Part shown: positions 280 through 16,118 of the stretch, in pieces
Numbering within the stretch: position 1 is the stretch's first letter
Layout: the number at the start of each line of letters is the position of its first letter
Assembly: GCA_024681875.1 (NCBI GenBank)
Contig: JAILAA010000114.1
Location: forward strand, 1 to 17,294
Origin: Prevotella sp.
GTDB lineage: Bacteria > Bacteroidota > Bacteroidia > Bacteroidales > Bacteroidaceae
Direction: 5' to 3'
DNA length: 17,294 nucleotides
The notes under the pieces: generated by a model
What the model was told of the DNA's origin: nothing
The model's database searches: none
The model's input: only the letters and a program-made list of their open reading frames with translations
Translations under genes and position numbers: made by a program

Positions 280-1302
280 CTATCCCGAATTTTTTGCAGA
301 TGTCTGGCGGATGACAAGCTGCTGAGGAACTATCTCGCGGTAGACACGCTGGTCGCCGCCGATGTGGCGCAGCAGCAGTTGGCAGGCACGCTGCCCCATG
401 AGCGCCGACTGGTCGACAATAGCTGACAGCTGCGGCGTGACGTAGCAGGCGTGCTCATCATCGGTGAATCCGATGAGCGCCACGTCCTTCGGAATAGCCA
501 GTCCCAGCTGCTTGATGGCCGTGAAGGCCGCAAAGGTGATGATGTCGTTGAAAGCCAGGATAGCATCGGGGCGGTTGTCGCTCTGCAGGAGCTGCAACGT
601 GTTCTTCAGGGCCAAGTCATAGTCGATGCGGTCACATACAACGATGTTTCTGTCAATAGGAATCCTGCTTTCGCGCAGCGCCTCTAAGTAGCCGTGTTTG
701 CGTCGCCGCACCATGTCGAGGTGCTGTGGTCCGCCGATGAAGGCGATGCGGCGCGAGCCCGTGTCGATGAGGTGCTGCGTGGCCTGCTGTGCTGCCTCGT
801 CGCCGTTTGCAGTGACGGTGCTGAACGTATCGGTGAGGCAGGTGCGGCCGAAGAAAACCAAAGGAATGCCCATGCGCTGAATCTCCTCAAAGTGCTCGTA
901 TGTGGTGGTGTCCTGCGCCAGGCAGGCGATGATGCCCTCTACGTGCAGCGAGTTGAAGTTGTCGACGATGCGAGCCTCAGCCTCTTTGCTCTCATGGCTA
1001 TTGGCACTGATGACGCTATAGCCTGCGCGGGTGGCCTCGGCCTCAATGCCGTCGAGCACGGAGGCGTAATAATGTGTGACAAGGTTGGGCACGACGACAC
1101 CGATGACTTTTGGTGCCTCTTTACGCAGGCTCTGGGCAAAGGGGTTAGGACGATAGTTCAGCTCCTTGGCCAGTGCCTGCACCCTCTGCTGCATCTCCTG
1201 CCCGATTTCAGGACTGCCGTGCAAGGCGCGGCTAACCGTGGCGATGCTTACGCCTAGTTGCTGGGCAATGTCTTTCAATGACGTTCTGCGCTGCTGTTTC
1301 AT
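280..1302 (-). CDS. LacI-family transcriptional regulator
   Basis: This 340-residue protein has the full LacI/GalR architecture. An N-terminal helix-turn-helix with hinge helix (about residues 6-60) carries the motif LKDIAQQLGVSIATVSRAL, followed by the LNYRPN hinge region. A periplasmic-binding-protein-like effector domain (about 60-335) includes IGVVVPNL, the DGIEAEA helix, FIGGP and the ALIGFTDDE segment. It should bind DNA as a dimer and respond to a sugar or related small molecule; the ligand cannot be read from sequence. I chose the ATG at 1302 because a good Bacteroidota promoter lies at 1329-1360; an in-frame ATG at 1359 would put the start on the -33 element and operator. The gene stands alone in its transcription unit, facing away from any visible target. 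The operator overlapping its own promoter suggests autoregulation. Family assignment is firm; regulon unknown. Confidence 0.95.
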   Translation of the reverse strand: MKQQRRTSLKDIAQQLGVSIATVSRALHGSPEIGQEMQQRVQALAKELNYRPNPFAQSLRKEAPKVIGVVVPNLVTHYYASVLDGIEAEATRAGYSVISANSHESKEAEARIVDNFNSLHVEGIIACLAQDTTTYEHFEEIQRMGIPLVFFGRTCLTDTFSTVTANGDEAAQQATQHLIDTGSRRIAFIGGPQHLDMVRRRKHGYLEALRESRIPIDRNIVVCDRIDYDLALKNTLQLLQSDNRPDAILAFNDIITFAAFTAIKQLGLAIPKDVALIGFTDDEHACYVTPQLSAIVDQSALMGQRACQLLLRHIGGDQRVYREIVPQQLVIRQTSAKNSG

Positions 1303-1328
1303 CTTTGCGTTCTCTGACAATTTGCCGA

Positions 1329-1360
1329 CAAAAGTACGCAAAAAAAACGAATTACGCAAA
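1329..1360 (-). promoter_or_regulatory. Bacteroidota-type promoter of the LacI-family gene
   Basis: Read on the minus strand, a TTTG -33 element (1357-1360) is followed after exactly 20 bp by TACTTTTG (1329-1336), a perfect match to the TAnnTTTG -7 consensus of Bacteroidota. The -7 element ends 26 bp before the ATG at 1302, leaving a short leader. It occupies the 74-bp gap between the regulator and the upstream DUF5686 gene, whose stop is at 1377. Confidence 0.75.
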
Positions 1361-1376: not shown

Positions 1377-3932
1377 TTAGAACGTAGTGCGTATCATGAA
1401 GCGCACGCCCTGCTTGTTGGCTGATGAACGGTATTCGCCATCAAGGTAGTTCAGGCGTCGCACATACTCCACGTGCAGCAGTTTTAAAATGTTATGTATG
1501 CCGAAGGAAGCCTCAATATATGGTGTCTTTGAATTCATGACGTGCGAGCCTTCAGGAAAATCCATCAGGATGCTGTTGCCTGCGTTCTCGGTCAGGAAAG
1601 GATTGTTTTTGTCGGTCAACTGGCCCCAGAGACACTTCACCGACAGCCATTCTCTCCACTTCAGCTTTCGCAGCAGCGGTATGCGGTTGAACACCTTGCC
1701 GTTGAGGTCCCAGTCAATCATGAGCGAGGCGTAGCGGTCGTTGAGGAACTCCATGTTGTTGATGAGGTTGAAGGTCTGGTCCTCGAGGATGTAGCCCAGG
1801 TTGGCAACGGGCATGATAAGCAACGGGTAGGGCACGCGGTTCCACTGGGCACCGAACTTCAGGCGGGTGTCAATCTTTCCCCAGTTCATGGGCAGCCACG
1901 CGCGTTTGTAGAACTCACCCTCAGTGAAGTTGTAGTTGTACTGTCCACCCAGCACGCCGTTGAAGCCCATGGTGTGCTGCAGGCGGAACACGGGTGCCTC
2001 AAGGTTGAGGGGCCAGCGATGCTGCTTCGTGTTGATGAAGGTCTCACCGGGCGCGTAGCGGATGCCCACGGTGCCTTCGGTGTAGCGTATGTGGTTGAGG
2101 GGCGTCTCAGCGTTGAGCGGTTTCAGCTCGATGTTGCCTACGGGCGCCACACGCTCGGTCTTGGCCTCGGCGAACACCTTGAAGCCCCATTCCTGCTCGA
2201 AGTCGAAGTTGAAGGCCTGCCGGTTGTAGAGGAACATCTTGTCGATTTCAGTCACCTTGACCGAAGTAAACATGTTGTCCTTGTCGGTCTGGATGAACTT
2301 GTCGCTGGGCAGCGCCACGTCGCGCATGGACTGGAAGCTGATGGTCTGCCTGGGGAATTCTCGCGGCAGATAGCCCGGCCGGTTGAACGCCCAGATGGCC
2401 TCGGCGTCGTAGTAATTCTGGTGCGAGGCAATACCGCGTGCCACATATCCTTTCAGGAAGAGATGCGGATGTAGGTTGGCTGTTGTCTGTGCACTGGCTC
2501 GGAAACGGATGTCGTCGTAGAAGTTCTGCGACACAATGGTGTTCACAGGGCCTATGTCAATTTTGCTGGGGTGTTCTTTCGAACCCGTTTCGACGAAATT
2601 CTCTATGAGCGCTTTCAGTCCGAAGAGGATATACTTGAAGCCCTTCAGCTCCTCCATGTGCTTGATGAGCTGGTCGATGCTGCTTTCGCTCTTGGTCAGC
2701 TCCACCTGACGGTACTGATTCCAGAAGTCGTCGTCTTGCATCTCGGCATAGGCGTCTTTCAACACACTTTTCCTGCCGCGTAATAGCGAGTTGGGAATCT
2801 CTTCGAAGGAGAAGTCTGTGCGGCGTGTTGTCCTGATGACAATGAATTTCGAGAAGAACTTGGCTGCCATCAGCTCCACGAACATGTCGTCGACAGTGAG
2901 CACCCACTCGCCGTTCTCCAGCTGTGTGAACTCTTGAAGACATTTCATGTTCTCCACCCAGTTCACGTCGCTGGTCTTGGGAATTGTCAGCTCGCAGCGC
3001 TTCACCTGATAGCTGCTATCGGCTAGAATGTAGATTTGTCCCCTGAAGCCGAAGTCCTGCGGATTGTTCGGTATGAAGTCGAGCATGATGCACTTGTCGC
3101 TGCCCACATAGAGCGTGTCGCTGATGTAGAAACGGTAGAACTGTATGGCATCCTTGCCGATGGGGCTGGTGAAGGGATACTGGAAGAGACGCACGTTGTC
3201 CTCGTAGATGTCGATGTCAGTAAAAACGTCCTTGAGCACGCTATTCAGGATGTCGCCCGTCTGGAACAGGTCGTTGATGCCTGTGGAGTTTTGCCCCTTG
3301 ATAATGCTCTTCTCGGCGTGCGGATCCTTTCTGTATATTTTCTGTGCGACGGTTTCCTCGACGCTCATCGGCAGGATGAGCTTCTGGTTGTATTGGCACA
3401 CCTCAATCTGATTCAGCAGCCACTGGTGTTTGTGGAACATCCTGGAGTTGAGGTCGGGCTCAGTAAGGTCGTTCAGGGCCAGTGTGATTTTCTGATAATT
3501 ATTGTACTGGTAGAAATCGTGGTTTTTCAGCTCAGTCCGTTTCTTTGCAGCAATGACCTTCTTCATCAGCTCTACGGCAGGGTTGTCCTTCCTGCTGTAC
3601 TTCGACTTGCGCTTTGACTTCACGCTCACCTCGCTGAGCTGCTGTGTATCGGCTTTGAGCCTCACTACGATATGGTCGGGCGTCTGCCGGGTGATGTTGA
3701 TAACTTGCGGAATATAACCCACTGAGCTGACGGTAAGGCGCCAGCCTTGGTGGCGTTCAATGGTGAACTTGCCTTCTTCGTCGCTGGCCACGGCTACTTT
3801 GTTGCCGCGATAGATGGCACTGGCGTAAGGTACTGGAAGCCCGCTTTTATCGTCTATGATTTCTCCCGTTATCTGTGCCATAACCGTTTGCACCAAAAAC
3901 ACAAGCAGGAAGGCAATGATGGAACGTTTCAC
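1377..3932 (-). CDS. DUF5686 outer-membrane protein with carboxypeptidase-like regulatory domain
   Basis: This 851-residue protein begins with a signal peptide (about 1-19, cleaved near VMA-Q). A carboxypeptidase-regulatory-like beta-sandwich follows (about 20-95, with GEIIDDKSGLPVPYASA and SVGYIPQ), then a long region typical of DUF5686 from about residue 110 to the end. The last residue is Phe after a strand-like segment (RFMIRTTF), as in outer-membrane beta-barrels. The family is common in Bacteroidota and its function is not established; it resembles TonB-dependent receptors in its N-terminal domain but I see no plug domain. The start is GTG at 3932: an in-frame TAA lies five codons upstream and the signal peptide begins directly at MKRSIIAFLL, so no ATG alternative fits. 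It is transcribed divergently from the lipid gene cluster. Length and domain order are normal for the family. Confidence 0.88.
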   Translation of the reverse strand: MKRSIIAFLLVFLVQTVMAQITGEIIDDKSGLPVPYASAIYRGNKVAVASDEEGKFTIERHQGWRLTVSSVGYIPQVINITRQTPDHIVVRLKADTQQLSEVSVKSKRKSKYSRKDNPAVELMKKVIAAKKRTELKNHDFYQYNNYQKITLALNDLTEPDLNSRMFHKHQWLLNQIEVCQYNQKLILPMSVEETVAQKIYRKDPHAEKSIIKGQNSTGINDLFQTGDILNSVLKDVFTDIDIYEDNVRLFQYPFTSPIGKDAIQFYRFYISDTLYVGSDKCIMLDFIPNNPQDFGFRGQIYILADSSYQVKRCELTIPKTSDVNWVENMKCLQEFTQLENGEWVLTVDDMFVELMAAKFFSKFIVIRTTRRTDFSFEEIPNSLLRGRKSVLKDAYAEMQDDDFWNQYRQVELTKSESSIDQLIKHMEELKGFKYILFGLKALIENFVETGSKEHPSKIDIGPVNTIVSQNFYDDIRFRASAQTTANLHPHLFLKGYVARGIASHQNYYDAEAIWAFNRPGYLPREFPRQTISFQSMRDVALPSDKFIQTDKDNMFTSVKVTEIDKMFLYNRQAFNFDFEQEWGFKVFAEAKTERVAPVGNIELKPLNAETPLNHIRYTEGTVGIRYAPGETFINTKQHRWPLNLEAPVFRLQHTMGFNGVLGGQYNYNFTEGEFYKRAWLPMNWGKIDTRLKFGAQWNRVPYPLLIMPVANLGYILEDQTFNLINNMEFLNDRYASLMIDWDLNGKVFNRIPLLRKLKWREWLSVKCLWGQLTDKNNPFLTENAGNSILMDFPEGSHVMNSKTPYIEASFGIHNILKLLHVEYVRRLNYLDGEYRSSANKQGVRFMIRTTF

Positions 3933-4082: not shown

Positions 4083-4090
4083 TAATTTTG
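4083..4090 (+). promoter_or_regulatory. -7 promoter element of the lipid operon
   Basis: TAATTTTG matches the Bacteroidota TAnnTTTG -7 consensus exactly and sits only 8 bp before the ATG at 4099. With transcription starting a few bases beyond the element, the mRNA would have almost no 5' leader. No clear TTTG is seen at the -33 spacing. No purine-rich ribosome-binding site lies before the start codon. Confidence 0.6.
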
Positions 4091-4098
4091 CATTTTAT

Positions 4099-4575
4099 AT
4101 GGAGCGTCCACCAAAATTGCCCGTGATTGTCGGTACGGGATTTGGAGCCGGATTCTGGCCGTTAGGGCCGGGGACGGCGGGGGCAGTGGTAGCCACGGCT
4201 ATGTGGCTTTGTCTTCATGTCTGGTTGCAGGGATGGGGACTGGTAGCTGTCGTCGGTACACTTGTCGTCTTGTTTACTATGCTGGGCACATGGGCAACGG
4301 CCCGGCTGGAGCCTTTCTGGGGAGAAGATCCTCAGCGCGTGGTAGTGGATGAGATGGTAGGCGTATGGATACCGCTTCTGCTGGCTTCTGGCTGGCAGTC
4401 GGCGCTGGCAGCCTTGGTGTTGTTTCGCTTCTTTGACATTGTCAAACCGCTGGGCATCAGGTCGCTCGACCGGCGTCATGGTGCTTTTTGGGTGATGGCA
4501 GACGACATACTGGCAGGCGTCTATTCTGCACTTGTGTTAGGCATCATAATTCTGGTAACAGGATGGGAAGGCTGA
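4099..4575 (+). CDS. pgpA: PgpA-family lipid phosphatase (candidate PI-phosphate phosphatase)
   Basis: A 158-residue membrane protein with the PgpA signatures: GTGFGAGFWPLGPGTAG (residues 12-28), the acidic motif DPQRVVVDEMVG (77-88) with the conserved Asp84-Glu85, and the C-terminal MADDILAGVYSA. The family removes the terminal phosphate from phosphatidylglycerophosphate at the inner membrane. Here the neighbours (CDP-alcohol phosphatidyltransferase, GtrA-like and AUR1-like proteins) match the inositol-lipid cluster of Bacteroides thetaiotaomicron, where a phosphatase acts on phosphatidylinositol phosphate; that substrate is therefore my preferred inference. Ordinary PgpA function in phosphatidylglycerol synthesis remains possible. 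It is the first gene of the plus-strand run and its ATG lies 8 bp after a -7 element, suggesting a leaderless message. The few residues before the first motif leave no later start. The last 13 bp overlap the next gene. Confidence 0.88.
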   Translation: MERPPKLPVIVGTGFGAGFWPLGPGTAGAVVATAMWLCLHVWLQGWGLVAVVGTLVVLFTMLGTWATARLEPFWGEDPQRVVVDEMVGVWIPLLLASGWQSALAALVLFRFFDIVKPLGIRSLDRRHGAFWVMADDILAGVYSALVLGIIILVTGWEG

Positions 4576-5024
4576 GGCGCGAGGTGTGGACATTCTGCAA
4601 GGCACAGCTGTCGGCACAGGTAGCTACGCTGGTGGACTTCAGCGTGTCGTTCATTCTTGCAGCCGGAATGGGAGTCTGGTACGTGACCGCATCCTTCCTC
4701 GGAGCGCTGAGCGGCGGCATTGTCAACTGCGCCGTTAACTATCGCTGGGTGTTCCGTGCGGGAATGCTGAAGAAGCGATACGTGGTGCTGAAGTATTTCG
4801 TGGTGTGGACGGGCAGCATCCTGCTGAACACACTGGGTACGCATCTGCTGACAGAGTGGACGGGCCAATACTTCATCTTCCCGAAGATGGTAGTGGCTGT
4901 GTCAATAGCATTGTTGTGGAACTATCCTATGCAGCGTGTCTTCGTCTATCGAGACAACAGGATGAACGAGCGGCTTGGCCAGTTTAAGGAACATAGAAAA
5001 CAAACAGAGAAGAATGAACTATAG
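4563..5024 (+). CDS. GtrA-family small membrane protein
   Basis: A 153-residue protein with four predicted membrane segments and the GtrA pattern: a first pair of helices ending in the NYRWVF motif (about 58-63), then two more helices ending in WNYPMQRVFVYR. GtrA-like proteins are thought to help move lipid-linked sugars or other polar-headed lipids across the inner membrane. In this cluster it could assist movement or presentation of an inositol lipid, but that is inference from position. I chose the ATG at 4563, overlapping the phosphatase stop by 13 bp, because the upstream extension in this frame has no family resemblance. Its 3' end overlaps the next gene by 11 bp, indicating translational coupling. 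The charged tail after the last helix (about residues 128-153) is ordinary. Confidence 0.85.
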   Translation: MGRLRREVWTFCKAQLSAQVATLVDFSVSFILAAGMGVWYVTASFLGALSGGIVNCAVNYRWVFRAGMLKKRYVVLKYFVVWTGSILLNTLGTHLLTEWTGQYFIFPKMVVAVSIALLWNYPMQRVFVYRDNRMNERLGQFKEHRKQTEKNEL

Positions 5025-5673
5025 AGACTTCTTGCAGAAAATAATCTACAATATCATCAACCCTGTCATAAAGTTGATGATTAAATTGCATATCACTCCA
5101 AATGTCGTCACCGCCCTTGGATTCCTGGGTAACATTGCCGCCACAGCATTCTTTATCGTGGCTGCACGGCGGATGGCAGCGTCGTCCCAGGATGCTTTTT
5201 GCCTGATAGGGTGGGGTGGAGCCATTATCCTTTTTGCAGGACTCTTCGACATGATGGATGGCCGTCTGGCCAGAATGGGCGGTCTTTCTACCACTTTCGG
5301 TGCTCTTTGGGATTCCACGCTTGACCGCTACAGCGAGTTAGTGTCGCTTTTCGGCATTTGTCTGGTATTCCTGTTGTCCGGCGACAAGTGGTTCTGGATG
5401 GGTGTCGTCACCTTTGTTGCCATGGTCGGCTCTGTGATGGTGAGCTATGTGCGTGCCCGTGCCGAAGGCTTGGGCATAGAGTGTAAGGTGGGACTGATGC
5501 AACGCCCTGAGCGTGTCGTCGTCACGGCAGTGGCGGCCATTGTCAGCGGTTTCACACACAATCTGTGGTGGCTGGCTGGAGGTATGTTGCTGATCGCTGT
5601 CCTGGCCAACGTGACAGCTTTCTGGCGTATTGCCCATTGCTACAAGATTCTAAACGAGCGAGATGGCAAGTAA
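5014..5673 (+). CDS. CDP-alcohol phosphatidyltransferase, candidate phosphatidylinositol-phosphate synthase
   Basis: A 219-residue integral membrane enzyme carrying the complete CDP-alcohol phosphatidyltransferase signature: Asp79, Asp82-Gly83, Ala86-Arg87, Gly96, Asp100 and Asp104. It would move a phosphatidyl group from CDP-diacylglycerol onto an alcohol, with metal bound by the Asp residues. The later segment SYVRARAEGLG, six residues further QRPERVVV, closely resembles the SYIKARAE...ERPER region of mycobacterial phosphatidylinositol-phosphate synthase, which supports inositol-1-phosphate as acceptor. Gene order with a PgpA-type phosphatase and an AUR1-like enzyme agrees with this. Phosphatidylglycerophosphate synthase is the main alternative. 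The ATG at 5014 follows the purine-rich AGAGAAG, and ATGAACTATAG joins its start to the upstream stop. It overlaps the next gene by 11 bp. Confidence 0.85.
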   Translation: MNYRDFLQKIIYNIINPVIKLMIKLHITPNVVTALGFLGNIAATAFFIVAARRMAASSQDAFCLIGWGGAIILFAGLFDMMDGRLARMGGLSTTFGALWDSTLDRYSELVSLFGICLVFLLSGDKWFWMGVVTFVAMVGSVMVSYVRARAEGLGIECKVGLMQRPERVVVTAVAAIVSGFTHNLWWLAGGMLLIAVLANVTAFWRIAHCYKILNERDGK

Positions 5674-6616
5674 TATTAAGCTTTTCGACCTGTCTACGCT
5701 GACGCGCCGTGAGATAACCGTTGTCCTGACGGCGTCGCTGCTCTTTCTGGTGTTCCAGATTACGGTGGTGGGCATCCTGCCGACGCATTTCCTGATGGTG
5801 GCCCTGTTCCTACTGTTCTACTTTGCCCATCCCTTGAGTCGCAAGATGGCCATTGCCTTGCTGCCATTCATCGCTTTCGAGGTGTGCTATGACTGGATGC
5901 GCCTGTATCCCAACTACAGGGTGAACAGCGTTGACATCAAGCCTATCTATGAGGCCGAGCTGAGTCTTTTCGGCATCACTTCTGAAGGGACGACCATGAT
6001 TCCGGGCGAATACTTCATGCTCCATCACAATGGTGTGGCCGACTTCCTTTCGGGCTGCTTCTATCTGTGTTGGGTGCCGCTGCCCATTTTTTTCGCCATT
6101 GCTCTCTTTTTTATGGGAAAGAGCCGCCGTTGCGTGCACTTTACGCTCTGCTTCCTCTTTGTCAACTTAGTGGGCTTCGTCATCTACTACATTCATCCCG
6201 CTGCACCGCCCTGGTATGTGTTGGAGCATGGCTTTGAGCCGGATTTCTCTACGCCGGGCAACGTGGCAGGTCTCATCCGCTTCGACGAGATGGTAGGCAT
6301 CCCCGTATTCCAGAGTATCTACGTGGGCAACTCCAATGTCTTTGCTGCCGTTCCTTCGCTACATGCGGCCTATATGTTGATTACTACTATCTACGCTGCA
6401 CGTTACAAGGTAACGAGGGTCATCTTTGCCATCGTTACTGCAGGTATCTGGTGGACGGCCGTTTATTCCTGCCATCACTATATCATTGATGTCATCTTGG
6501 GCATTGCAACTGCCGTCGTGGGATTCCTGCTGTTTGAAAAGGTGCTGATGAGGACTAAGAAGATGCGCGCCCTGACGGACAGCTATGCGGCTTACATATT
6601 GTATAAAAGAGTGTGA
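5663..6616 (+). CDS. AUR1-like PAP2 protein, candidate inositol phosphorylceramide synthase
   Basis: A 317-residue protein with about six membrane helices and the motifs of the eukaryotic AUR1 branch of the PAP2 superfamily: VCYDWMRLYPNY (about 74-85), YYIHPAAPPWY, AAVPSLHAAY with His234, and CHHYIIDVILG with His272 and Asp276. These correspond to the catalytic His-His-Asp triad of Aur1, with nearly the same spacing (38 residues between the His residues here). Such enzymes transfer phosphoinositol from phosphatidylinositol to ceramide; in Bacteroides an AUR1-like protein is placed in inositol sphingolipid synthesis. The clustered synthase and phosphatase would supply the phosphatidylinositol. 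Substrate assignment is inference; a ceramide-directed enzyme with another head group is possible. Its start overlaps the upstream stop by 11 bp, and the next gene begins 4 bp after its stop. Confidence 0.85.
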   Translation: MASNIKLFDLSTLTRREITVVLTASLLFLVFQITVVGILPTHFLMVALFLLFYFAHPLSRKMAIALLPFIAFEVCYDWMRLYPNYRVNSVDIKPIYEAELSLFGITSEGTTMIPGEYFMLHHNGVADFLSGCFYLCWVPLPIFFAIALFFMGKSRRCVHFTLCFLFVNLVGFVIYYIHPAAPPWYVLEHGFEPDFSTPGNVAGLIRFDEMVGIPVFQSIYVGNSNVFAAVPSLHAAYMLITTIYAARYKVTRVIFAIVTAGIWWTAVYSCHHYIIDVILGIATAVVGFLLFEKVLMRTKKMRALTDSYAAYILYKRV

Positions 6617-6620
6617 AGGC

Positions 6621-8162
6621 ATGAACACGATAGCGCACCATCTGCTACAGCTGACTATTGCCCTGTTGGCATTCTTTGCCAACAGCCAGGCAGTCATGGC
6701 TCAGACTGAGCTGAGGATGGAGGCGCAGTCCACCATCAGTAGTGGCGACTTCACTCCCTTGTGGCTGAATGCCAACCGCTATGGCTTGAGCTCGTTTGAC
6801 AAGAGCAACGGCTATGTGCGTGCCGGGCTGTTTCATACTCCTGTCGACACGCTGAAAAACTGGACACTGGGCTATGGCGTTGACTTGGCTGTGGCTCACC
6901 ACTATAGCAGTACACTCATTGTACATCAGGCTTACACCGACATCGGATGGAAACAGTGGCTGCTGACCATAGGCTGCAAGGAACAGCCCTTGGCGATGCG
7001 CAACCAGCAGTTGAGCAGTGGTGCCCAGACACTTGGTGTCAATGCCCGTCCTGTGCCGACGGTGCGACTGTCGCTGCCAGATTACTGCACGGTACCCTAT
7101 ACCCGCGGTTGGCTGTCGGTGAAGGGGCACATGGCCTATGGTCGTCTGACCGATGACAATTGGCAAGAAGATTTTTCTGATAAGATCAACAAGCACTCCA
7201 GCGGCACACTCTACCACAGCAAGGCGGGCTACATGCGCATTGGCAATCCGCGGCGCAGCTTTAATCTGGAACTAGGCCTTGAAATGGGATGTCTCTTTGG
7301 CGGCACCACTCACAGAATGGTAGACGGGCAGATGGCTGATCTGAAGAACAGAAGTGGAATAGGTTCCTATATCAACGCCTTTATTCCCAGCGGTGGCGAG
7401 ATTGACGAGGGGGAATACAGAAACCGCGAGGGGAACCATCTGGGCAGCTATCTCATCAGAGCCAACTTCGACAGACCGCGATTCAGCCTGGGCCTTTATG
7501 CTGACCACTTTTTTGAAGACCACTCACAGATGTTCTTTGTCGACTACGATGGCTATGGTCAGGGTGAAGAGTACCAGAAATGGAAAGAAAACCGCTGGCT
7601 GATCTATGAACTTCACGACATCATGCTAGGCATGGACCTACGGCTGAAACGCTGTCGCTGGCTTAACGCCCTGACCTTCGAGTATATCTACACCAAGCAC
7701 CAGAGCGGTTCTGTTAATCACGACCGTACAAGAGAGATTTCCGACCACGTTGCAGGCATGGACGACTACTACAACCACTACCTCAACTCTGGCTGGCAGC
7801 ACTGGGGACAGGTTATGGGCAACCCGCTCTACCGCTCTCCGCTCTACAATACTAATAGCACCATACGTGTGGCTAACAACCGTTTCTGGGCATGGCACGC
7901 AGGTATTGCCGGCCATCCGCTGGCCGGGGTGGAGTATCGTTTGATGGCCACGCTGCAGAAAGGATGGGGCACGTATAACAATCCATTGCCTGACCCCGAG
8001 CGCAATACCAGCATCATGGCCGAAGCCGGATATACCGTGCCCGATGGTGCAAACTTGTCAGGATGGAGCATCAGGGCAGCCTGGGGGGTAGACCATGGCC
8101 ATTTGCTTGGCAACAATATGGGTGTGCAACTGACCATTGCCCGCAGGTTGCTGTTGAAATGA
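6621..8162 (+). CDS. Wzi-like capsule assembly outer-membrane protein
   Basis: A 513-residue exported protein. The signal peptide (about 1-27) ends at VMA-Q. The mature part is rich in amphipathic, aromatic strands (for example MRIGNPRRSFNLELGLEMG and RFSLGLYADHFFEDHSQMFFVDYDG), as in outer-membrane beta-barrels, and resembles the Wzi family of Bacteroidota. Wzi of Escherichia coli is an outer-membrane lectin that anchors group 1 capsule at the cell surface. The ATG at 6621 was chosen because the signal peptide starts there and it follows the AUR1-like gene's stop by only 4 bp; an earlier in-frame ATG lies within the preceding gene. Its place in a lipid operon suggests the lipid and surface polysaccharide are managed together. 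No glycosyltransferase or capsule export gene is in the window, so a capsule role is inferred. Confidence 0.78.
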   Translation: MNTIAHHLLQLTIALLAFFANSQAVMAQTELRMEAQSTISSGDFTPLWLNANRYGLSSFDKSNGYVRAGLFHTPVDTLKNWTLGYGVDLAVAHHYSSTLIVHQAYTDIGWKQWLLTIGCKEQPLAMRNQQLSSGAQTLGVNARPVPTVRLSLPDYCTVPYTRGWLSVKGHMAYGRLTDDNWQEDFSDKINKHSSGTLYHSKAGYMRIGNPRRSFNLELGLEMGCLFGGTTHRMVDGQMADLKNRSGIGSYINAFIPSGGEIDEGEYRNREGNHLGSYLIRANFDRPRFSLGLYADHFFEDHSQMFFVDYDGYGQGEEYQKWKENRWLIYELHDIMLGMDLRLKRCRWLNALTFEYIYTKHQSGSVNHDRTREISDHVAGMDDYYNHYLNSGWQHWGQVMGNPLYRSPLYNTNSTIRVANNRFWAWHAGIAGHPLAGVEYRLMATLQKGWGTYNNPLPDPERNTSIMAEAGYTVPDGANLSGWSIRAAWGVDHGHLLGNNMGVQLTIARRLLLK

Positions 8163-8190: not shown

Positions 8191-8631
8191 ATGAAAAAGA
8201 GTATACTACTGGCTTTCCTTACGCTGTTTTTGTCAGCATGTCATTTCGAGGTCTCCGATAACGGCGATCTTGACGGCTTCTGGCAGTTGTATAGCGAAGA
8301 CACGCTATCCTCAGGGCAGTCTGCCGATATGAGACAGAGCGGTATCTACTGGGCTGTGCAGATGCGCCTGTTGAGCATCGAAGCCAAGAAACAGAACATT
8401 CGTTTCCTGTTCCGCTTCACTCACGAAGGTTCCACGCTGCGCCTCTACGACCCTCGAGTGGATTTCCGTCCCAGCTTTGGCGAGAGAGCCGATACGGCTG
8501 TGACATGTGCCGACAGCCTGCATTTCCTTGGGCTGAACAGCCTTGACGAGTCGTTCTTCGTTGAGGAGCTTAACAGTTCGCGCATGACGCTGCGCAACGA
8601 CAGCTTACGCCTCTACTTTAGGCGGTATTGA
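8191..8631 (+). CDS. Small lipoprotein, lipocalin-like
   Basis: A 146-residue lipoprotein: Lys-rich start, hydrophobic stretch and lipobox LSAC with the acylated residue Cys17. After it comes an acidic short linker and a DGFWQLYS segment resembling the first strand of small lipocalin-like proteins of Bacteroidota (G-x-W-type), followed by alternating strand-like sequence to the end. I cannot name a specific family or ligand. It starts 28 bp after the Wzi-like gene and is the last of six co-directional genes, so it is probably part of the same transcript. It meets the peptidase gene tail to tail with 66 bp between them; I see no strong terminator hairpin in that gap. Confidence 0.75.
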   Translation: MKKSILLAFLTLFLSACHFEVSDNGDLDGFWQLYSEDTLSSGQSADMRQSGIYWAVQMRLLSIEAKKQNIRFLFRFTHEGSTLRLYDPRVDFRPSFGERADTAVTCADSLHFLGLNSLDESFFVEELNSSRMTLRNDSLRLYFRRY

Positions 8632-8697: not shown

Positions 8698-10902
8698 TTA
8701 CTTCAGATAATCTTCGAAATACTGCGTGATGCGCTCATGCAGATGCACGCTGGCGTGCCCCGCCATGTTGTGGCCTTCGCCGGGATAGACAAAAAAGTCG
8801 GGCTGCGTGCCGTTTTCAATGCAAGACTTTAGGAACGATAAGGCGTGCTGCGGTACGACGGTAGGGTCGTTATAGCCGATAATAATCTGTAGCTTGCCCT
8901 TCAGATTCTTCGCTTTGCTGATGAGGCTAGTCTTAGCGTAGCCTTCGGGATTCTGCTGCGGTGTGTCCATGTAGCGCTCGCCGTACATCACCTCGTACCA
9001 TTGCCAGTCGATGACAGGTCCTCCTGCCACACCCACCTTGAATACGTCGGGATAGTTGGTCATCAGCGAGATGGTCATATATCCACCGTAGCTCCAGCCA
9101 TGCACGCCAAGGCGATTTATGTCAACGTAGGGCAGAGTGCGCAAGTATTCCACGCCCTTCATCTGATCCTGCATCTCCACCTGTCCGAGCTGTCTGAAGG
9201 TGGCCTGCTCAAAGTCGCGGCCACGATTCTCAGAGCCACGGTTGTCGAGGATGAACACGATGTAACCTTTCTGTGCCATGTATGTCTCCCACGAGCGCGA
9301 GGCCCAATGCCACGAGGCATCGACATTGTGAGCATGAGGACCTCCGTAGACGTAGACCACTGTGGGATATTTTTGCTCAGGATTGAAGTCGTGAGGCTTC
9401 ACCATGCGCCAATAAAGATCAGTTGTACCGTCAGCGGCCTTGATGCTGCCGTTCTCAAAAACGGGCTGCACATATTCGGCCCAAGGATCTGGAGCAGTGA
9501 GTAAATTTATACGTCTTTGCTTCATATACCGGCTCTTTGTACTGGTATATTGAAGGTTGATATCGTTTGGGGTGGTGGGAGTAGAGTATTTGTCGTAGAG
9601 CATCTGGCCTGAGGCCGATAGCTTGGCGCGATGCACACCTTCGCCATTGTCAAGCAGTGTACGGTAGCCGCTTGCCATGTCAACACTGTAGAGGTTGCGT
9701 TGTAGCGGATGTATCTCATTAGAAGCAATGATAACACTCTTCTGTTTCTCATTAAAGCCCAGCACATCGAGTACTTCCCATGGACCGCTAGTGAGCTGCT
9801 TTATCAGCTCCCCGTTTACATTATATATATAAATATGGTTATAGCCGTCCTTGCGGCTCTGCATAATGAACTGGCTGTTGTTCCATGGCAGGAACTGGAT
9901 GGGGTTGAGCGGCTCCACGTATTTGTCGCTGGTCTCACGGCAGAGTTCCGTCAGGCGCTCGCCTGTCACGGCATCATAGCTGACGAGGCGGCAGTCGTTC
10001 TGGTCGCGGTTCAGTTCGAACATGTAGATGGTCTTGGCGTCAGGACTCCAGGAAATATTGGTGAAGTAGCAGGTCTGCTCCAAGGCTGTTGCAGTAACAT
10101 CGACAGGCGGTGTCTTAAGATAGACGGTCTTTTTAGTTTTCAGATCGTAGACACCGATGGTGACAACGTGGGTGTTCATGCCAGCCATGGGATATTTGTC
10201 GGGTTCCATCTCTGCCTCTCGCGGGTCGATGTCCACCTGCGGATAGTCCGTCACCATGCTCTGGTCCATACGGTAGAAGGCGAGGCGCTGGCCATCGGGG
10301 CTCCAGAAAGTGCCTTTGTAGATGCCGAACTCATCGCGATGCACGCTTTTGCCGTAGACAATCTCGCGTGAGCCGTCGGTGGTGAGCTGTTGCATGTTGC
10401 CGTTGGCATCGACGACAAAGAGCTGGTTGTCTTCTACGTAGGCCGTGGCACGCGAGTCCTTGCTCCAGTCGTAGGCATCCTGGCCTGAAATGCTGTCCTG
10501 CCATACTATTTGCTTCGCCTTGAAGTCGACGAGCACGAAGGCGCGGCGGTTGCCCACAGCCACGATAGGCTTATCGGGATAAGGGAAGGTGGCATAAGTG
10601 AGTTGTCGTACCTGCGTCTTTTCACCGTCGCAGCCAGCCCACTTGTTTACTTGGTCAAGGGTGAAGAGCAGTTTTTTCTTCCCCGTCTTGGTGTCAATGG
10701 TGTAACATTCCTCCACGTCGGTCTGCACCAGCTGGTCGCCCCACCATGTGAGGAACAAGTTCTGCGGTCGTAAGCTGTGATAGTTGCGCCCGCCGAAGTT
10801 CAAATCCTCGAGGGTGAAGAGCTTCTTCTGTGCAGTCATAGGTAGGGCAAGGAGTATCAGGAGAAGAGCATGGGTGAGACGAGTGTATAGGGTGTTAATC
10901 AT
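8698..10902 (-). CDS. DPP-IV-like S9 family serine peptidase (exported)
   Basis: A 734-residue exported peptidase. A signal peptide (about 1-24, cleaved near TA-Q) leads into an N-terminal beta-propeller typical of dipeptidyl peptidase IV, including VHRDEFGIYKGTFWSPDG with the Glu that usually holds the substrate amino terminus, and EPDKYPMAG. The C-terminal alpha/beta-hydrolase domain has the catalytic triad Ser604 (GWSYGGYM), Asp679 (GYNDPT) and His711 (GEGHNM); spacings resemble human DPP-IV. It should remove N-terminal dipeptides (X-Pro or X-Ala) or tripeptides in the periplasm, feeding peptide uptake. The ATG at 10902 was chosen because the signal peptide starts there; the longer open frame upstream lies inside the methyltransferase gene in another frame. 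The start overlaps that gene's stop (ATGATTAA), so both are likely cotranscribed. Confidence 0.92.
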   Translation of the reverse strand: MINTLYTRLTHALLLILLALPMTAQKKLFTLEDLNFGGRNYHSLRPQNLFLTWWGDQLVQTDVEECYTIDTKTGKKKLLFTLDQVNKWAGCDGEKTQVRQLTYATFPYPDKPIVAVGNRRAFVLVDFKAKQIVWQDSISGQDAYDWSKDSRATAYVEDNQLFVVDANGNMQQLTTDGSREIVYGKSVHRDEFGIYKGTFWSPDGQRLAFYRMDQSMVTDYPQVDIDPREAEMEPDKYPMAGMNTHVVTIGVYDLKTKKTVYLKTPPVDVTATALEQTCYFTNISWSPDAKTIYMFELNRDQNDCRLVSYDAVTGERLTELCRETSDKYVEPLNPIQFLPWNNSQFIMQSRKDGYNHIYIYNVNGELIKQLTSGPWEVLDVLGFNEKQKSVIIASNEIHPLQRNLYSVDMASGYRTLLDNGEGVHRAKLSASGQMLYDKYSTPTTPNDINLQYTSTKSRYMKQRRINLLTAPDPWAEYVQPVFENGSIKAADGTTDLYWRMVKPHDFNPEQKYPTVVYVYGGPHAHNVDASWHWASRSWETYMAQKGYIVFILDNRGSENRGRDFEQATFRQLGQVEMQDQMKGVEYLRTLPYVDINRLGVHGWSYGGYMTISLMTNYPDVFKVGVAGGPVIDWQWYEVMYGERYMDTPQQNPEGYAKTSLISKAKNLKGKLQIIIGYNDPTVVPQHALSFLKSCIENGTQPDFFVYPGEGHNMAGHASVHLHERITQYFEDYLK

Positions 10903-12448
10903 GTCGACGATTGTTTTTGTTATAGCGTTTGCCGCCGCTGCGGTCGAAGTGCTCGTGCCCGCCACGGTTTTGGTTGTCGTTGAATTTGCCTGGTTTTCCG
11001 GACTTCCCTGAATATCCAGGTTTCCCGGAATGTCCGGAATAATCAGAGAAACGGGATTTACGTTCTTCTCCGTCCTCTTTCCACTTTCCTTTTTCCTCTT
11101 TTCTCCTTCCACCTTCCACTTTCCACTTTCCTCTTTCCTCTTTTCCGAAGTCGTGGCGGTGGAAGGTGAACGAGCGAATGTCGCCCTCTTCGTTCTCCTC
11201 CTGCTCGGTGAGGCGCTGCTTGAACTCTCGCTCTTTCTTGAAACGGTGGGTCTGTGCCATCTGGCGCTTCTCCTCGTCGGTCTTTACGATGCCGCCCTCG
11301 CTGCGGAACTGTTTCATCTTGCCGTCGAACATCTGGTATTTGCGCAACTCGCACTCCAGGCTTCCGTTGTAGAGGGGAATCTTGATGCTGGGCTTCAAGC
11401 CTATCTGCTCAAAGCATTCTTCGCGATAGCTCAGTATCCATGCATCGCCGCCCATGAACTGGTGCTTCAATCTTTCACCAATCATGCGGTAGGTCTCCAG
11501 CAGGTTGGGGGTACTGATGCGCTCGCCATAGGGCGGATTGGTAACGATAATGGCCTTGTCCTTGGGCTGCGTGAAGTCTTTGAAGTCCTGCTGCTCCACG
11601 GTGATGCAGTCGCTCAGTCCTGCGGCCTTCACGTTGGTGCGGGCCGTGTTGACGGCCTTGAAGTCGATGTCGTAGCCGTAGATATGGTGCTGGAACTCGC
11701 GCTCCTGCGAGTCGTCGTTATAGATGCGGTCGAAGAGGTCGGCGTCGAAATCAGGCCATTTCTCAAAAGCATATTCCTTGCGGAACAGTCCTGGGGCCAT
11801 GTTGCGTGCGATGAGGGCGGCCTCGATGAGGAACGTGCCCGAGCCGCACATCGGGTCGATGAAGTCAGTCTCGCCCTGCCAGCCCGTCATCAGGATGATG
11901 CCGGCGGCAAGCACCTCGTTGATGGGTGCCTCGACGCTTTCCTGGCGGTAGCCGCGACGGTGCAGACTCTCGCCGCTGCTGTCGAGACACAGTGTGCACT
12001 GATCCTCAGCCACATGTATGTGCAGACGCAGGTCAGGATTGGCTACGGAGATATTGGGGCGCTTGCCAGTGCGCTCGCGTAGCTGGTCGACAATGGCGTC
12101 TTTCACCTTGTAGCTGACGAATTTGGAGTGGCGGAACTCCTCGCTGAACACAACACTGTCGACGGCAAACGTCTTGTCGTCGCTCAAATATTCTGTCCAG
12201 TCGATTTTCTTGATTTCCTCGTAGACGTCATCGGCACTGCCAGCCTTGAAGCGGTGGATGGGTTTGAGAATCTTGATGGCCGTATGCAATTGGAAGTTCG
12301 CGCGATACATCATTTCCTTGTCACCCGTAAACGACACCATGCGTCTACCTATTTGCACGTCGTTAGCCCCCAGTTGAGTCAGCTCTTTAGCCAGGACGGG
12401 CTCCAGTCCCATAAATGTTTTGGCAATGAGCTCAAATGTTTGTTCCAT
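10895..12448 (-). CDS. rlmL: THUMP-domain class I RNA methyltransferase (RlmL-like) with long basic tail
   Basis: A 517-residue protein. The N-terminal half holds a THUMP RNA-binding domain (about 45-155). The methyltransferase domain has the SAM-binding DPMCGSGTFLIEAA (Asp198 onward) and the catalytic NPPYGER motif (Asn304 onward), as in RlmL/YcbY, which makes N2-methylguanosine in 23S rRNA (G2445 in E. coli). The second, RlmK-type domain of the E. coli fusion is absent, as usual in this phylum. Residues from about 382 form an unstructured, highly charged tail with lysine-rich simple sequence and a nonapeptide repeat. The ATG at 12448 is preferred because the promoter at 12473-12503 lies inside any longer reading, and the protein begins with the family-typical FELIAKTFMGLEPVLAKEL. 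The stop overlaps the peptidase start by 8 bp. Confidence 0.9.
   Translation of the reverse strand: MEQTFELIAKTFMGLEPVLAKELTQLGANDVQIGRRMVSFTGDKEMMYRANFQLHTAIKILKPIHRFKAGSADDVYEEIKKIDWTEYLSDDKTFAVDSVVFSEEFRHSKFVSYKVKDAIVDQLRERTGKRPNISVANPDLRLHIHVAEDQCTLCLDSSGESLHRRGYRQESVEAPINEVLAAGIILMTGWQGETDFIDPMCGSGTFLIEAALIARNMAPGLFRKEYAFEKWPDFDADLFDRIYNDDSQEREFQHHIYGYDIDFKAVNTARTNVKAAGLSDCITVEQQDFKDFTQPKDKAIIVTNPPYGERISTPNLLETYRMIGERLKHQFMGGDAWILSYREECFEQIGLKPSIKIPLYNGSLECELRKYQMFDGKMKQFRSEGGIVKTDEEKRQMAQTHRFKKEREFKQRLTEQEENEEGDIRSFTFHRHDFGKEERGKWKVEGGRRKEEKGKWKEDGEERKSRFSDYSGHSGKPGYSGKSGKPGKFNDNQNRGGHEHFDRSGGKRYNKNNRRHD
10988..11041 (-). repeat. Tandem nonapeptide-coding repeat in the methyltransferase tail
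   Basis: Residues 470-478 and 479-487 of the RlmL-like protein read YSGHSGKPG and YSGKSGKPG, a 27-bp in-frame duplication differing at one residue. The Gly/Ser/Lys/Pro composition suggests a flexible basic linker that could touch RNA; this is inference. Confidence 0.7.
11057..11146 (-). repeat. Purine-rich simple-sequence tract, in frame in the methyltransferase tail
   Basis: On the plus strand 11073-11146 is almost only C and T, with heptamer-like units such as TTTCCAC and TTTCCTC repeated many times. On the coding strand it gives residues about 435-464, rich in Lys, Glu, Arg and Trp (GKWKVEGG, GKWKEDGE). The strand asymmetry and base composition differ sharply from the rest of the gene. 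Reading frame is kept throughout. It resembles dispersed GGAAAG-type simple repeats, which would need a genome search to confirm. Confidence 0.75.
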
Positions 12449-12472
12449 TAAGTACAAAAGCTTTTCAGCGTG

Positions 12473-12503
12473 CAAAGTTAAGGAATTACGAGGAAAGAGC
12501 AAA
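12473..12503 (-). promoter_or_regulatory. Bacteroidota-type promoter of the methyltransferase-peptidase operon
   Basis: On the minus strand TTTG (12500-12503) is followed after 19 bp by TAACTTTG (12473-12480), a perfect TAnnTTTG element. It ends 24 bp before the ATG at 12448. It lies back to back with the -7 element of the kinase gene (12544-12551). Confidence 0.75.
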
Positions 12504-12543
12504 AGAAAAATGCTTATTTCTTTTCTGATTGGAAAAAACTTTG

Positions 12544-12551
12544 TAAATTTG
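12544..12551 (+). promoter_or_regulatory. -7 promoter element of the histidine kinase gene
   Basis: TAAATTTG is a perfect TAnnTTTG match, 6 bp before the ATG at 12558, implying an almost leaderless mRNA if that start is used. The -33 region is only T-rich. In-frame ATG codons at 12579 and 12597 would leave a leader of usual length. Confidence 0.6.
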
Positions 12552-12557
12552 CACGCG

Positions 12558-13799
12558 ATGAGCCAGATATTGTGTTTAATGTCTTCTTTCAGTAGCATGG
12601 TCCTCTTGGGACTGATGATTGTGGCCTGCCTGATTTTTGTCGGGCTCATTGTGTGGCAGCGCCGACAAGGCCGCGACTTGCGTTATGAGCTGGCGCAGTT
12701 GGACAAGCTGAAGGAGAACAACATCGAGTCGGAATTTGTGCTGCGCGCCATGCATCTCACTACGTGGCATCTTGATCCGAAAACAATGGCCATCACCTTC
12801 GACAGTGACTTCCGAGAACATGCCGAGTGGGGAATGCCCCATGATGAGAATGTGTTCTATAAAGATCTGCAGCAGCAGTTGGTTCCCGAGGATGCAGAAC
12901 GCGTGAGCAAGGCACTGCTTGACATCTGCGAGGGACGCAGTGAGAACTATCACACAGAGTATCGTATGCGCATCCCCAACACCGACAGATATTATTGGGA
13001 GGAGAGTTTCGCCACCATCACCGAGCGCGATTTCGAGGGCAAGCCAATCGGCATCGTTGGTACTTCCATGAACATCGATGACCGTAAGCAGATGGAAGAG
13101 GCTCTTGTCGATGCCCGCAACCGTGCTGAGGAGAGTGACCGTCTGAAGTCCGCATTTATTGCCAACATTAGCCACGAGATACGCACGCCTTTGAACGCCA
13201 TCGTGGGTTTTACGAGCGTGTTGCCCGACATCAGCGACGATGCCGAGCGCCGCTCGCTGCTTGACCTCATTCACGAGAATACGCAGAAGTTGCTACGTAT
13301 TATCGACGACGTGGTGAACATCTCGAAGATAGAGTCGGGTCAGGATCAGATGGTGCTGACCAGTTTTGAGCTGAACATGACGCTGACCGAACTTGCTGAG
13401 CGATACCGTCAGGAACTGAAGCCTACTGTGCAGATGAACACGCAATTCGCCTGCGAGCAACAGACTGTGACTACCGATTTGAAACGTTTCTCAGAAGTGA
13501 TTCGCAACTTGCTGTCCAATGCCGTGAAGTTTACGCCGCAGGGCACCATCACTGTGGGCTATGACGCACCTGTCGATGGTCGCATCCATGTCTGGGTGTG
13601 TGACACGGGCGTAGGCATCTCGGAAGAAAACCAGCAGCATGTATTCGAGCGTTTCTTCAAGGTCGACGAGTTTGTGCCTGGTGCTGGCTTGGGCTTGAGT
13701 ATCTGCCATACAATGGCCTACAGCATGGGTGGAACGGTGAATGTGCATTCACATCTTGGCGAGGGATCTGTGTTCACACTTGATATCCCTGTACAATAG
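12558..13799 (+). CDS. Membrane sensor histidine kinase with PAS domain
   Basis: A 413-residue kinase. One membrane helix (about 14-34, VLLGLMIVACLIFVGLIVW) is followed by a short coiled region and a PAS/PAC domain (about 60-180, ending GIVGTSMNIDDRKQMEEAL). The HisKA domain carries the phospho-accepting His206 in FIANISHEIRTPLNAIVGF. The ATPase domain shows Asn317/Asn321 (NLLSNAVKF), Asp349 (DTGVGI), ERFFK and GAGLGLSI. It would autophosphorylate and pass phosphate to a response regulator; none is fused or adjacent, so it is an orphan. There is almost no extracytoplasmic part, so the signal is probably cytoplasmic or within the membrane. I use the ATG at 12558, but 12579 or 12597 are possible given the promoter at 12544. 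The sulfatase-maturase-like gene follows after 30 bp in the same direction. Confidence 0.9.
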   Translation: MSQILCLMSSFSSMVLLGLMIVACLIFVGLIVWQRRQGRDLRYELAQLDKLKENNIESEFVLRAMHLTTWHLDPKTMAITFDSDFREHAEWGMPHDENVFYKDLQQQLVPEDAERVSKALLDICEGRSENYHTEYRMRIPNTDRYYWEESFATITERDFEGKPIGIVGTSMNIDDRKQMEEALVDARNRAEESDRLKSAFIANISHEIRTPLNAIVGFTSVLPDISDDAERRSLLDLIHENTQKLLRIIDDVVNISKIESGQDQMVLTSFELNMTLTELAERYRQELKPTVQMNTQFACEQQTVTTDLKRFSEVIRNLLSNAVKFTPQGTITVGYDAPVDGRIHVWVCDTGVGISEENQQHVFERFFKVDEFVPGAGLGLSICHTMAYSMGGTVNVHSHLGEGSVFTLDIPVQ

Positions 13800-15063: not shown

Positions 15064-16065
15064 TTATTCGTTGATGACCTTCTGAATGGTACCGTCAGCA
15101 TTGTAGAATAGCTGTTGCACCTTCAGTGAACGCAGGTGTGTGACGTCATTGGAGGGCACACAGTCGTGGAAGAACAGATACCATTGTCCGCGATACTCCA
15201 CGATGCAGTGGTGCGTGGTCCAGCCGACGACGGGGTCAAGGATGACGCCCTGATAGGTGAAGGGACCGTAGGGGTTGTCGCCCGTAGCGTAGCACAGCAT
15301 GTGACTGTCGCCCGTTGAGTAGCTGAAGTAATACTTGCCATTGTACTTATGCATCCAAGAGGCCTCGAAGAAGCGGTGTGGGTCACCAGCCTTCAGGGGC
15401 TGGCCGTCTTTGTCGACAATGAGGACCTGACGAGGAGCCTCGGCAAACTGAAGCATATCGTCGCTCAGACGTGCCATCAGGCTTGGCAGGGCAGGCATGT
15501 CGGGAGCGGTGAAGAGCTGTGTCTTGCGGTCAGGGGCAGGACCTAGGTCGACACCTTCCTTCAGAACTTTCTGCGGAGCGACATTCCACTGGAGTTGTCC
15601 ACCCCAGAGACCGCCGTAATAGACATAGACCTGTCCGTCGTCGTCCTTGAAAACGCAAGGGTCGATGCTGTAGGCACCACGAATGGGATGCTCCTGAGGG
15701 ATGAACGGGCCCTCGGGCTTGTCAGCAATGGCAACTCCAAGATGGAAGACACCATTATAGTCCTTGGCAGAGAAAATGAGATAATACTTGCCGTCCTTCT
15801 CACAGACGTCGCTGTCCCACATCTGCTTCTCAGCCCAGGGCACCTGGTCTACATCGAGGATGACACCGTGGTCGGTGGCGGGGTCGGTCTCTACGTTGTC
15901 GAAAGAGAGAACGTGGTAGTCGCGCATCTGGAAGTGTCCGCCGTCATCGTCGAAGGCTGCGCCTGCCTCCCAGTCGTGTGAGGGATAGATATACAGTCGG
16001 TTGTTAAACACGTGGGCCGCGGGATCGGCCATGTAGTCTTGTGGGAAAAGATACCTTGCTTTCAT
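15064..16065 (-). CDS. xynB: GH43 beta-xylosidase/arabinofuranosidase
   Basis: A 333-residue five-bladed beta-propeller glycoside hydrolase of family 43. The three catalytic acids are visible: general base Asp14 (YMADPAAHVFNNRLY), pKa-modulating Asp135 (GAYSIDPCVF) and general acid Glu234 (RFFEASWMHKYNGKYY). It starts at the catalytic domain with no signal peptide and no accessory carbohydrate-binding or C-terminal beta-sandwich domain, so it is probably cytoplasmic and acts on short xylo-oligosaccharides. Position directly downstream of a GH10 xylanase matches the XynA/XynB pair known from rumen Prevotella, in which the GH43 partner has xylosidase and exoxylanase activity. Whether xylose or arabinose is preferred cannot be read here. 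The 49-bp gap to xynA is filled by an 8-bp repeat. Confidence 0.9.
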   Translation of the reverse strand: MKARYLFPQDYMADPAAHVFNNRLYIYPSHDWEAGAAFDDDGGHFQMRDYHVLSFDNVETDPATDHGVILDVDQVPWAEKQMWDSDVCEKDGKYYLIFSAKDYNGVFHLGVAIADKPEGPFIPQEHPIRGAYSIDPCVFKDDDGQVYVYYGGLWGGQLQWNVAPQKVLKEGVDLGPAPDRKTQLFTAPDMPALPSLMARLSDDMLQFAEAPRQVLIVDKDGQPLKAGDPHRFFEASWMHKYNGKYYFSYSTGDSHMLCYATGDNPYGPFTYQGVILDPVVGWTTHHCIVEYRGQWYLFFHDCVPSNDVTHLRSLKVQQLFYNADGTIQKVINE

Positions 16066-16078
16066 AGTTTTATTATTT

Positions 16079-16118
16079 CGTTATGGCGTTATGACGTAAT
16101 TACGTTATCACGACTTAT
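16079..16118. repeat. 8-bp phased repeat between xynA and xynB
   Basis: Five consecutive octamers begin with CG: CGTTATGG, CGTTATGA, CGTAATTA, CGTTATCA and CGACTTAT (16079-16118). They include the perfect 12-bp palindrome ACGTAATTACGT (16091-16102 region). The tract fills most of the gap between the two xylan genes and runs into the last codon of xynA. It may affect mRNA structure or bind protein; no function is shown. Confidence 0.7.

What the first reader, a model, noticed from the sequence alone, without database searches (positions are those of the whole stretch)
4099..6616. Eukaryote-like inositol sphingolipid pathway in one overlapping operon
Seen: PgpA-type phosphatase, GtrA-like protein, CDP-alcohol phosphatidyltransferase with a complete catalytic signature and a mycobacterial PIP-synthase-like ARAE/RPER segment, and an AUR1-like protein with the His234-His272-Asp276 triad, all joined by 11-13 bp overlaps. 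Known: Bacteroides thetaiotaomicron has an inositol-lipid cluster with these families. Inference: CDP-DAG plus inositol phosphate gives PI-phosphate, then PI, then phosphoinositol ceramide.
Basis: partly seen in the sequence, partly recalled or inferred. Interest (0 to 1): 0.72.

Follow-up and report, generated by a model that had tools for sequence, protein, structure and literature searches.

The report
Prevotella operon for inositol sphingolipids
A Prevotella-type bacterium carries a four-gene operon, already worked out in Bacteroides, that very probably makes phosphatidylinositol by a mycobacterium-like route and moves its head group onto ceramide with an enzyme related to yeast AUR1; it is a divergent but ordinary member of a known pathway.

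Summary
PgpA-type phosphatase (4099-4575), GtrA-like protein (4563-5024), CDP-alcohol phosphatidyltransferase (5014-5673) and AUR1-like protein (5663-6616) overlap by 13, 11 and 11 nt; 74 of 80 related loci have all four in this order. They are a Prevotellaceae-type form of the Bacteroides thetaiotaomicron genes BT_1525-1522, whose pathway (inositol phosphate, PIP, PI, phosphoinositol dihydroceramide) was shown by knockouts in 2022 (PMC9246714, PMC8791184). The transferase matches mycobacterial PIP synthase; the last enzyme's profile finds only AUR1 among solved structures. Housekeeping PgpA/PgsA is disfavoured: 32 of 32 relative genomes have one PgpA-family gene. Corrections: only the last step is eukaryote-like, and inositol-phosphate synthase (MIPS) and ceramide genes are not in the window; MIPS was found in 31 of 37 relative genomes, on another contig in 16 of the 27 where both were located. 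New detail: a conserved promoter-like box before the first gene (23 of 25 loci); Wzi-family and lipocalin-like genes extend the operon in some relatives. GtrA is retained in most clusters and, with published mutant data, may carry PI across the inner membrane (untested). Ordinary overall.

The parts
1377..3932 (-). DUF5686 / CarboxypepD_reg_2 protein, divergently placed; a BT_1527-type neighbour (that name is inferred from the published description)
   Evidence: Pfam E 1.8e-37; a divergent homologue, 50-78% identical, lies beside PgpA in 24 of 80 loci
4083..4090 (+). TAATTTTG, a TAnnTTTG box like the Bacteroidota -7 promoter element, starting 16 nt before the first start codon; a very short leader is implied
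   Evidence: 23 of 25 divergent loci (window included) have the box starting 13-18 nt before the PgpA ATG; 24 of 25 within 60 nt against 1.0 expected from mononucleotide shuffles. That this motif is the -7 element is recalled.
4099..4575 (+). PgpA-family protein, probable PI-phosphate phosphatase (BT_1525 type)
   Evidence: Pfam PgpA E 7e-37; one copy per genome in 32 of 32 relatives
4563..5024 (+). GtrA-like membrane protein (BT_1524 type), four long helices plus a C-terminal helix; proposed PI translocator
5014..5673 (+). CDP-alcohol phosphatidyltransferase, probable PI-phosphate synthase (BT_1523 type)
   Evidence: NCBIfam best hit PIPSynBT1523 274.7 bits, under its cut-off of 350; best solved relatives are CDP-DAG-inositol 3-phosphatidyltransferases 6h5a/6h53, E 3e-20; full motif in 77 of 77 relatives
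5663..6616 (+). AUR1-like PAP2_3 protein, probable phosphoinositol dihydroceramide synthase (BT_1522 type)
6621..8162 (+). Wzi-family protein (probable outer-membrane protein) continuing the operon; alternative start 6585
   Evidence: Pfam Caps_assemb_Wzi E 2e-15; same place in 12 of 80 loci, 11 of them on the same strand
8191..8631 (+). Lipocalin_8 protein with a lipobox-like N terminus (LSAC, by eye), probable lipoprotein
   Evidence: Pfam E 6e-33; also after Wzi in 5 of 80 loci

Best explanation
The operon makes inositol lipids. CDP-diacylglycerol and myo-inositol phosphate are joined by the CDP-alcohol transferase into PI-phosphate; the PgpA-family phosphatase removes the phosphate to give PI; the AUR1-like enzyme moves phosphoinositol from PI onto dihydroceramide. 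Inositol phosphate comes from a MIPS gene elsewhere in the genome, and ceramide from an unlinked serine palmitoyltransferase pathway. The GtrA-like protein may help PI reach the periplasmic side, where the AUR1-like active site appears to lie (inferred, held less firmly than the rest). Enzyme steps: shown in B. thetaiotaomicron for the homologues, inferred here by homology. One promoter at 4083-4090 probably drives the operon through Wzi and perhaps the lipoprotein.
For: Families and motifs; solved-structure relatives; AUR1 model and folds; gene order in 74 of 80 loci; knockout lipidomics of the B. thetaiotaomicron homologues (PMC9246714; PMC8791184); MIPS in 31 of 37 relative genomes; SPT-like hits of 365-386 bits in 27 of 32 genomes, with the PACA motif reported for SPT (PMC10865984) in 8 of 8 read; one PgpA per genome in 32 of 32; conserved promoter-like box.
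Against: Neither NCBIfam equivalog cut-off is reached. MIPS is not in the window, and 6 of 37 relative genomes, drafts of unknown completeness, gave none. Five of 32 genomes lack a full-length SPT-class hit (one of them has a truncated one), and no hit reached the curated cut-off of the model used, TIGR01825. No genome or lipid data exist for the source. The PgpA-family enzyme could also act on PG-phosphate; one group could not delete BT1525 (PMC8791184). The two groups disagree on whether BT_1524 affects inositol lipids.
Confidence: 0.88

Rival explanations
1. The transferase and phosphatase are the housekeeping PgsA/PgpA pair and make phosphatidylglycerol; the AUR1-like protein is a general lipid phosphatase.
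For: Pfam's PgpA family is named for PG synthesis; one PgpA-family gene per genome means it could serve PG too; PMC8791184 failed to delete BT1525.
Against: PgsA model TIGR00560 scores 32.9 bits against 274.7 for PIPSynBT1523 and 125.7 for PIPSynth; ARAE/RPER segments align with PIPS; the last enzyme matches AUR1 specifically; deletion of BT_1525 left other glycerophospholipids unaffected (PMC9246714).
Confidence: 0.05
2. The operon makes PI-phosphate and PI, but the last enzyme moves another head group, such as phosphoglycerol, onto ceramide.
For: Phosphoglycerol dihydroceramide is reported in P. copri, P. gingivalis and B. vulgatus (PMC9246714, legends); the window enzyme falls below the curated cut-off.
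Against: It shares order and sequence with the BT_1522-type enzymes, sits beside a PI-making pair, and aligns with AUR1 over about 260 residues.
Confidence: 0.06

Closest known systems
Bacteroides thetaiotaomicron inositol-lipid cluster BT_1526-BT_1522 (PMC9246714, PMC8791184)
   Same: Same four families in the same order, tightly packed, with a DUF5686-type gene nearby
   Different: MIPS is not between the DUF5686 gene and PgpA; the DUF5686 gene is divergent; a Wzi-family and a lipocalin-like gene follow; both scored proteins are below the NCBI equivalog cut-offs. The BT proteins themselves were not compared; close Bacteroides loci such as L058 were
Yeast AUR1 inositol phosphorylceramide synthase (9ivc, 9vj3, 9vj4)
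   Different: About 20% identity, rmsd 5.5-5.7; no Kei1-like partner was looked for; bacterial membrane
Mycobacterial PI-phosphate synthase (6h53, 6h5a)
   Same: Match over residues 6-206 of 219, complete CDP-alcohol motif, ARAE and RPER segments
   Different: Here coupled to a PgpA-family phosphatase and a sphingolipid end product. That the entries are mycobacterial is recalled; the listing gives the enzyme name only
Alternative B. vulgatus-type cluster (NTP transferase, CDP-alcohol transferase, HAD) of PMC9246714
   Same: Proposed there to make the same lipids in other Prevotella
   Different: None of its genes is seen in the window ORFs

Membership tests
BT-like inositol-lipid cluster (BT_1522/23/25) | CDP-alcohol transferase with DxxDGxxAR...GxxxDxxxD | tested here: met
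   Residues 79-104
BT-like inositol-lipid cluster (BT_1522/23/25) | PgpA-family phosphatase in the cluster | tested here: met
   Pfam E 7e-37
BT-like inositol-lipid cluster (BT_1522/23/25) | PI-DHC synthase related to AUR1 in the cluster | tested here: met
BT-like inositol-lipid cluster (BT_1522/23/25) | PI and phosphoinositol dihydroceramide made | not testable with these tools
   No strain or lipid data
Complete BT_1522-1526 locus including MIPS | MIPS adjacent | tested here: not met
   No MIPS match in the window by tblastn at E 1e-6. In relatives, 41 of 80 loci have it directly upstream of PgpA (one, L060, a contig-edge fragment), 8 divergent, 2 elsewhere in the locus
NCBIfam equivalogs NF052561 and NF052609 | Score over the curated cut-off | tested here: not met
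   274.7 under 350; 407.6 under 480
AUR1 / IPC synthase | H-H-D catalytic triad aligned with yeast AUR1 | tested here: met
AUR1 / IPC synthase | AUR1 fold | tested here: met
AUR1 / IPC synthase | Phosphoinositol transfer to ceramide | not testable with these tools
   No assay possible
GtrA-type lipid translocators | Moves a lipid across the membrane | not testable with these tools
   Pfam family match; fold match is weak

The most novel reading that the evidence does not exclude
The GtrA-like protein is a PI translocator: PI made on the cytoplasmic face is carried across by GtrA to the AUR1-like enzyme, whose catalytic loops lie on the periplasmic side, and in this lineage the same operon adds surface proteins (Wzi family, lipocalin-like lipoprotein) that handle or use the product. 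This would give BT_1524 a function and fit its deletion mutant, which has less IPC and more PI in total membranes without a matching rise in outer-membrane vesicles (PMC8791184).
Probability: 0.25. Interest if true: 0.6.

Novelty: new member of a known kind. Interest (0 to 1): 0.3.

Why it matters
It extends a proven Bacteroides pathway to a divergent Prevotellaceae-type branch in which the source of inositol phosphate is often unlinked, and where naming by curated models fails. The retained GtrA gene makes an open question testable: how PI reaches the IPC synthase. Loss of inositol lipids lowered fitness in gnotobiotic mice (PMC9246714, abstract), so correct calling of the pathway in Prevotella is useful.

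Tried and rejected
Housekeeping PgsA/PgpA: rejected on model scores and PgpA copy number, with the limit that 11 of 32 genomes have three or more CDP-alcohol transferases.

MIPS in the alternative cluster: of 17 MIPS surroundings fetched, 16 lie on another contig than the cluster and one (L116) is the cluster itself; none of the 17 has a match to the NTP, CDP-alcohol, HAD or 280-aa proteins. Some are short (3.8-9 kb). L033, not among the 17, does have MIPS after that set.

Foreign origin by base composition: G+C 0.532 for the four genes against 0.533 for the window, no sign.

Capsule link through Wzi: only suggestive. PMC9246714 ties capsule gene expression to inositol phosphate, not inositol sphingolipids (section 8). 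Of 32 genomes, 27 have one Wzi-family match, one has a second weak one and 4 have none, and it is away from the cluster in many.

Against GtrA as translocator: the BT_1524 deletion looked normal by thin-layer chromatography (PMC9246714), and no GtrA was found in the cluster in L079, L158 and L159.

PDB sequence searches with PgpA and GtrA gave no match at E 1. Sigma-70-type promoter scan: 4 sites found, 3.7 expected.

Literature: (20 of 31 papers listed) shows BT1524 in only the two B. thetaiotaomicron studies; the words 'flip' and 'leaflet' occur in neither main text. One search (GtrA, flippase, phosphatidylinositol) listed 4 papers, none on this by title. Not in those searches does not mean not in print: subscription papers are mostly absent and no preprints are held. 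One search (ceramide phosphoethanolamine, Bacteroides, CDP-ethanolamine) found no paper; (Wzi, Bacteroides, inositol) listed 4, none on this by title.

Full report
What is there. No genome is held for the window. Its AUR1-like protein is closest, among one-per-species genomes, to Prevotella or Prevotellaceae assemblies (L001-L003, 68-71% identity; one titled water-buffalo rumen). Four genes lie on the + strand: PgpA-family phosphatase 4099-4575, GtrA-like protein 4563-5024, CDP-alcohol phosphatidyltransferase 5014-5673 and a PAP2_3 protein 5663-6616. The overlaps are 13, 11 and 11 nt. A Wzi-family gene starts 4 nt later and a Lipocalin_8 gene follows. Upstream, a DUF5686 gene points the other way.

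Context in relatives. The best 80 of 503 relatives found were kept and examined. All four genes in order on one strand: 74 of 80. PgpA and GtrA overlap in 66 of 75 clusters (window included), usually by 13 or 16 nt; GtrA-PIPS in 29 of 76; PIPS-AUR1 in 50 of 77. MIPS lies directly upstream of PgpA in 41 of 80 loci (one a contig-edge fragment), divergently in 8, elsewhere in the locus in 2; loci that end early count as misses. Of 37 genomes searched, 31 have MIPS; G003, G004, G026, G030, G033 and G037 gave none. Of the 27 genomes with both MIPS and PgpA located, 11 have them on one contig and 16 on different contigs. In G007 and G008 the separate MIPS stands beside a second DUF5686 gene. Unlinked MIPS was already noted for P. 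copri (PMC9246714, section 10).

Other genes of the pathway. TIGR01825 was used to look for serine palmitoyltransferase: 27 of 32 genomes have a full-length hit in the 365-386 bit class, G006 a truncated one, and G001, G007, G025 and G032 none; no hit reached that model's own cut-off of 535.4 bits. Eight of this class were read and all 8 carry the PACA motif; two readable members of the other, 440-bit class do not. The motif is described for SPT in PMC10865984 (results, part 1). PgpA family: exactly one copy in 32 of 32 genomes. CDP-alcohol transferases: two in 19, one in 2, three or more in 11 of 32; ten of those 11 (all but G003) include a longer type of 316-393 aa, and G003, G027 and G034 also have unidentified hits of 164-207 aa. 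In 301 genomes drawn from the family of G008, 38 match the PI-DHC synthase model, 17 over the cut-off; 34 score above 280 bits and 4 are weak.

Promoter. In the 25 loci with the divergent DUF5686 arrangement (window included), 23 have a TAnnTTTG box starting 13-18 nt before the PgpA start codon and 24 have one within 60 nt; 1.0 is expected from mononucleotide shuffles. In the window it is at 4083-4090. That this is the Bacteroidota -7 element is recalled; if so, the leader is only a few bases long.

Wzi and lipocalin. Wzi follows AUR1 in 12 of 80 loci, reversed in one (L013); Lipocalin_8 in 5 of 80. Seventy-five loci had at least 1800 nt of downstream DNA. On a tree of PgpA, PIPS and AUR1 from 34 chosen loci and the window (FastTree) the other Wzi loci lie in two groups apart from the window; L002 and L003, the nearest, lack it, and L001 ends too soon to tell. 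Early presence with losses is my guess; separate gains are not excluded, and several supports are low (0.10, 0.18, 0.42, 0.43). Twenty-eight of 32 genomes have a Wzi-family match, 27 of them only one.

Verdict. The finding is real and correctly read, but the pathway is published. What is new is small: a divergent member without adjacent MIPS, a conserved promoter-like box, and the Wzi-lipocalin extension.

Sources seen. PMC9246714: abstract and outline, sections 6, 8, 10 and extended-data legends, passages. PMC8791184: abstract and outline, sections 6 and 8, passages. PMC10865984: abstract and outline, results part 1 of 2. All others: search listings only.

Noticed in passing
L025:10001-14303, L026:3551-6871, L033:10001-15947, L034:71-3371, L035:9947-13616: Five of 80 loci carry the BT-like cluster (L034 only its cut end) and, directly beside it, genes fitting the description of the 'alternative' inositol cluster: a CDP-alcohol transferase and a protein of about 280 aa in all five, an NTP transferase in four (no hit in L035), a HAD protein in three (Pfam of four of these proteins, the 280-aa one without a hit). 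PMC9246714 says that almost every species with MIPS has one of the two clusters; its B. vulgatus proteins were not compared here.
   Followed up: partly
L158:5015-10060, L159:6068-7178, L021:9980-10891, L027:4375-5364: In two genomes (G021, G027) the AUR1-like gene stands apart from PgpA and PIPS, which have no GtrA between them (in L158 a 1196-aa frame lies there instead); their MIPS is also divergent (55% against 60-65% identity to L058 in the other Prevotella-type genomes).
   Followed up: partly
L161:1977-5853, L164:5201-8272, L160:3358-5379, L163:4107-6302: A longer CDP-alcohol transferase lies beside a membrane protein and, in L161 and L164, an aminotransferase-like gene (with an NTP-transferase-like gene in L161). 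This could be a head-group route for other ceramide lipids; all names but the transferase are by eye.
   Followed up: no
L162:4319-7220: NTP transferase, an aminotransferase resembling 2-aminoethylphosphonate transaminase (by eye) and a CDP-alcohol transferase in a row, a possible phosphonolipid set.
   Followed up: no
32 relative genomes: 21 of 32 genomes show at most two CDP-alcohol transferases, leaving no obvious PgsA for phosphatidylglycerol; the second enzyme was not identified beyond its size.
   Followed up: partly
window 8698-12649: A DPP4-like peptidase and an rRNA-methyltransferase-like gene (by eye) follow on the - strand. A DPP4 homologue lies downstream of the cluster on the + strand in about a dozen of 80 loci, so this part of the contig has been rearranged.
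   Followed up: no
window 280-1359 and 15064-17230: A LacI-family regulator next to the DUF5686 gene, and at the other end two glycoside-hydrolase-like genes (GH43- and GH10-like by eye).
   Followed up: no
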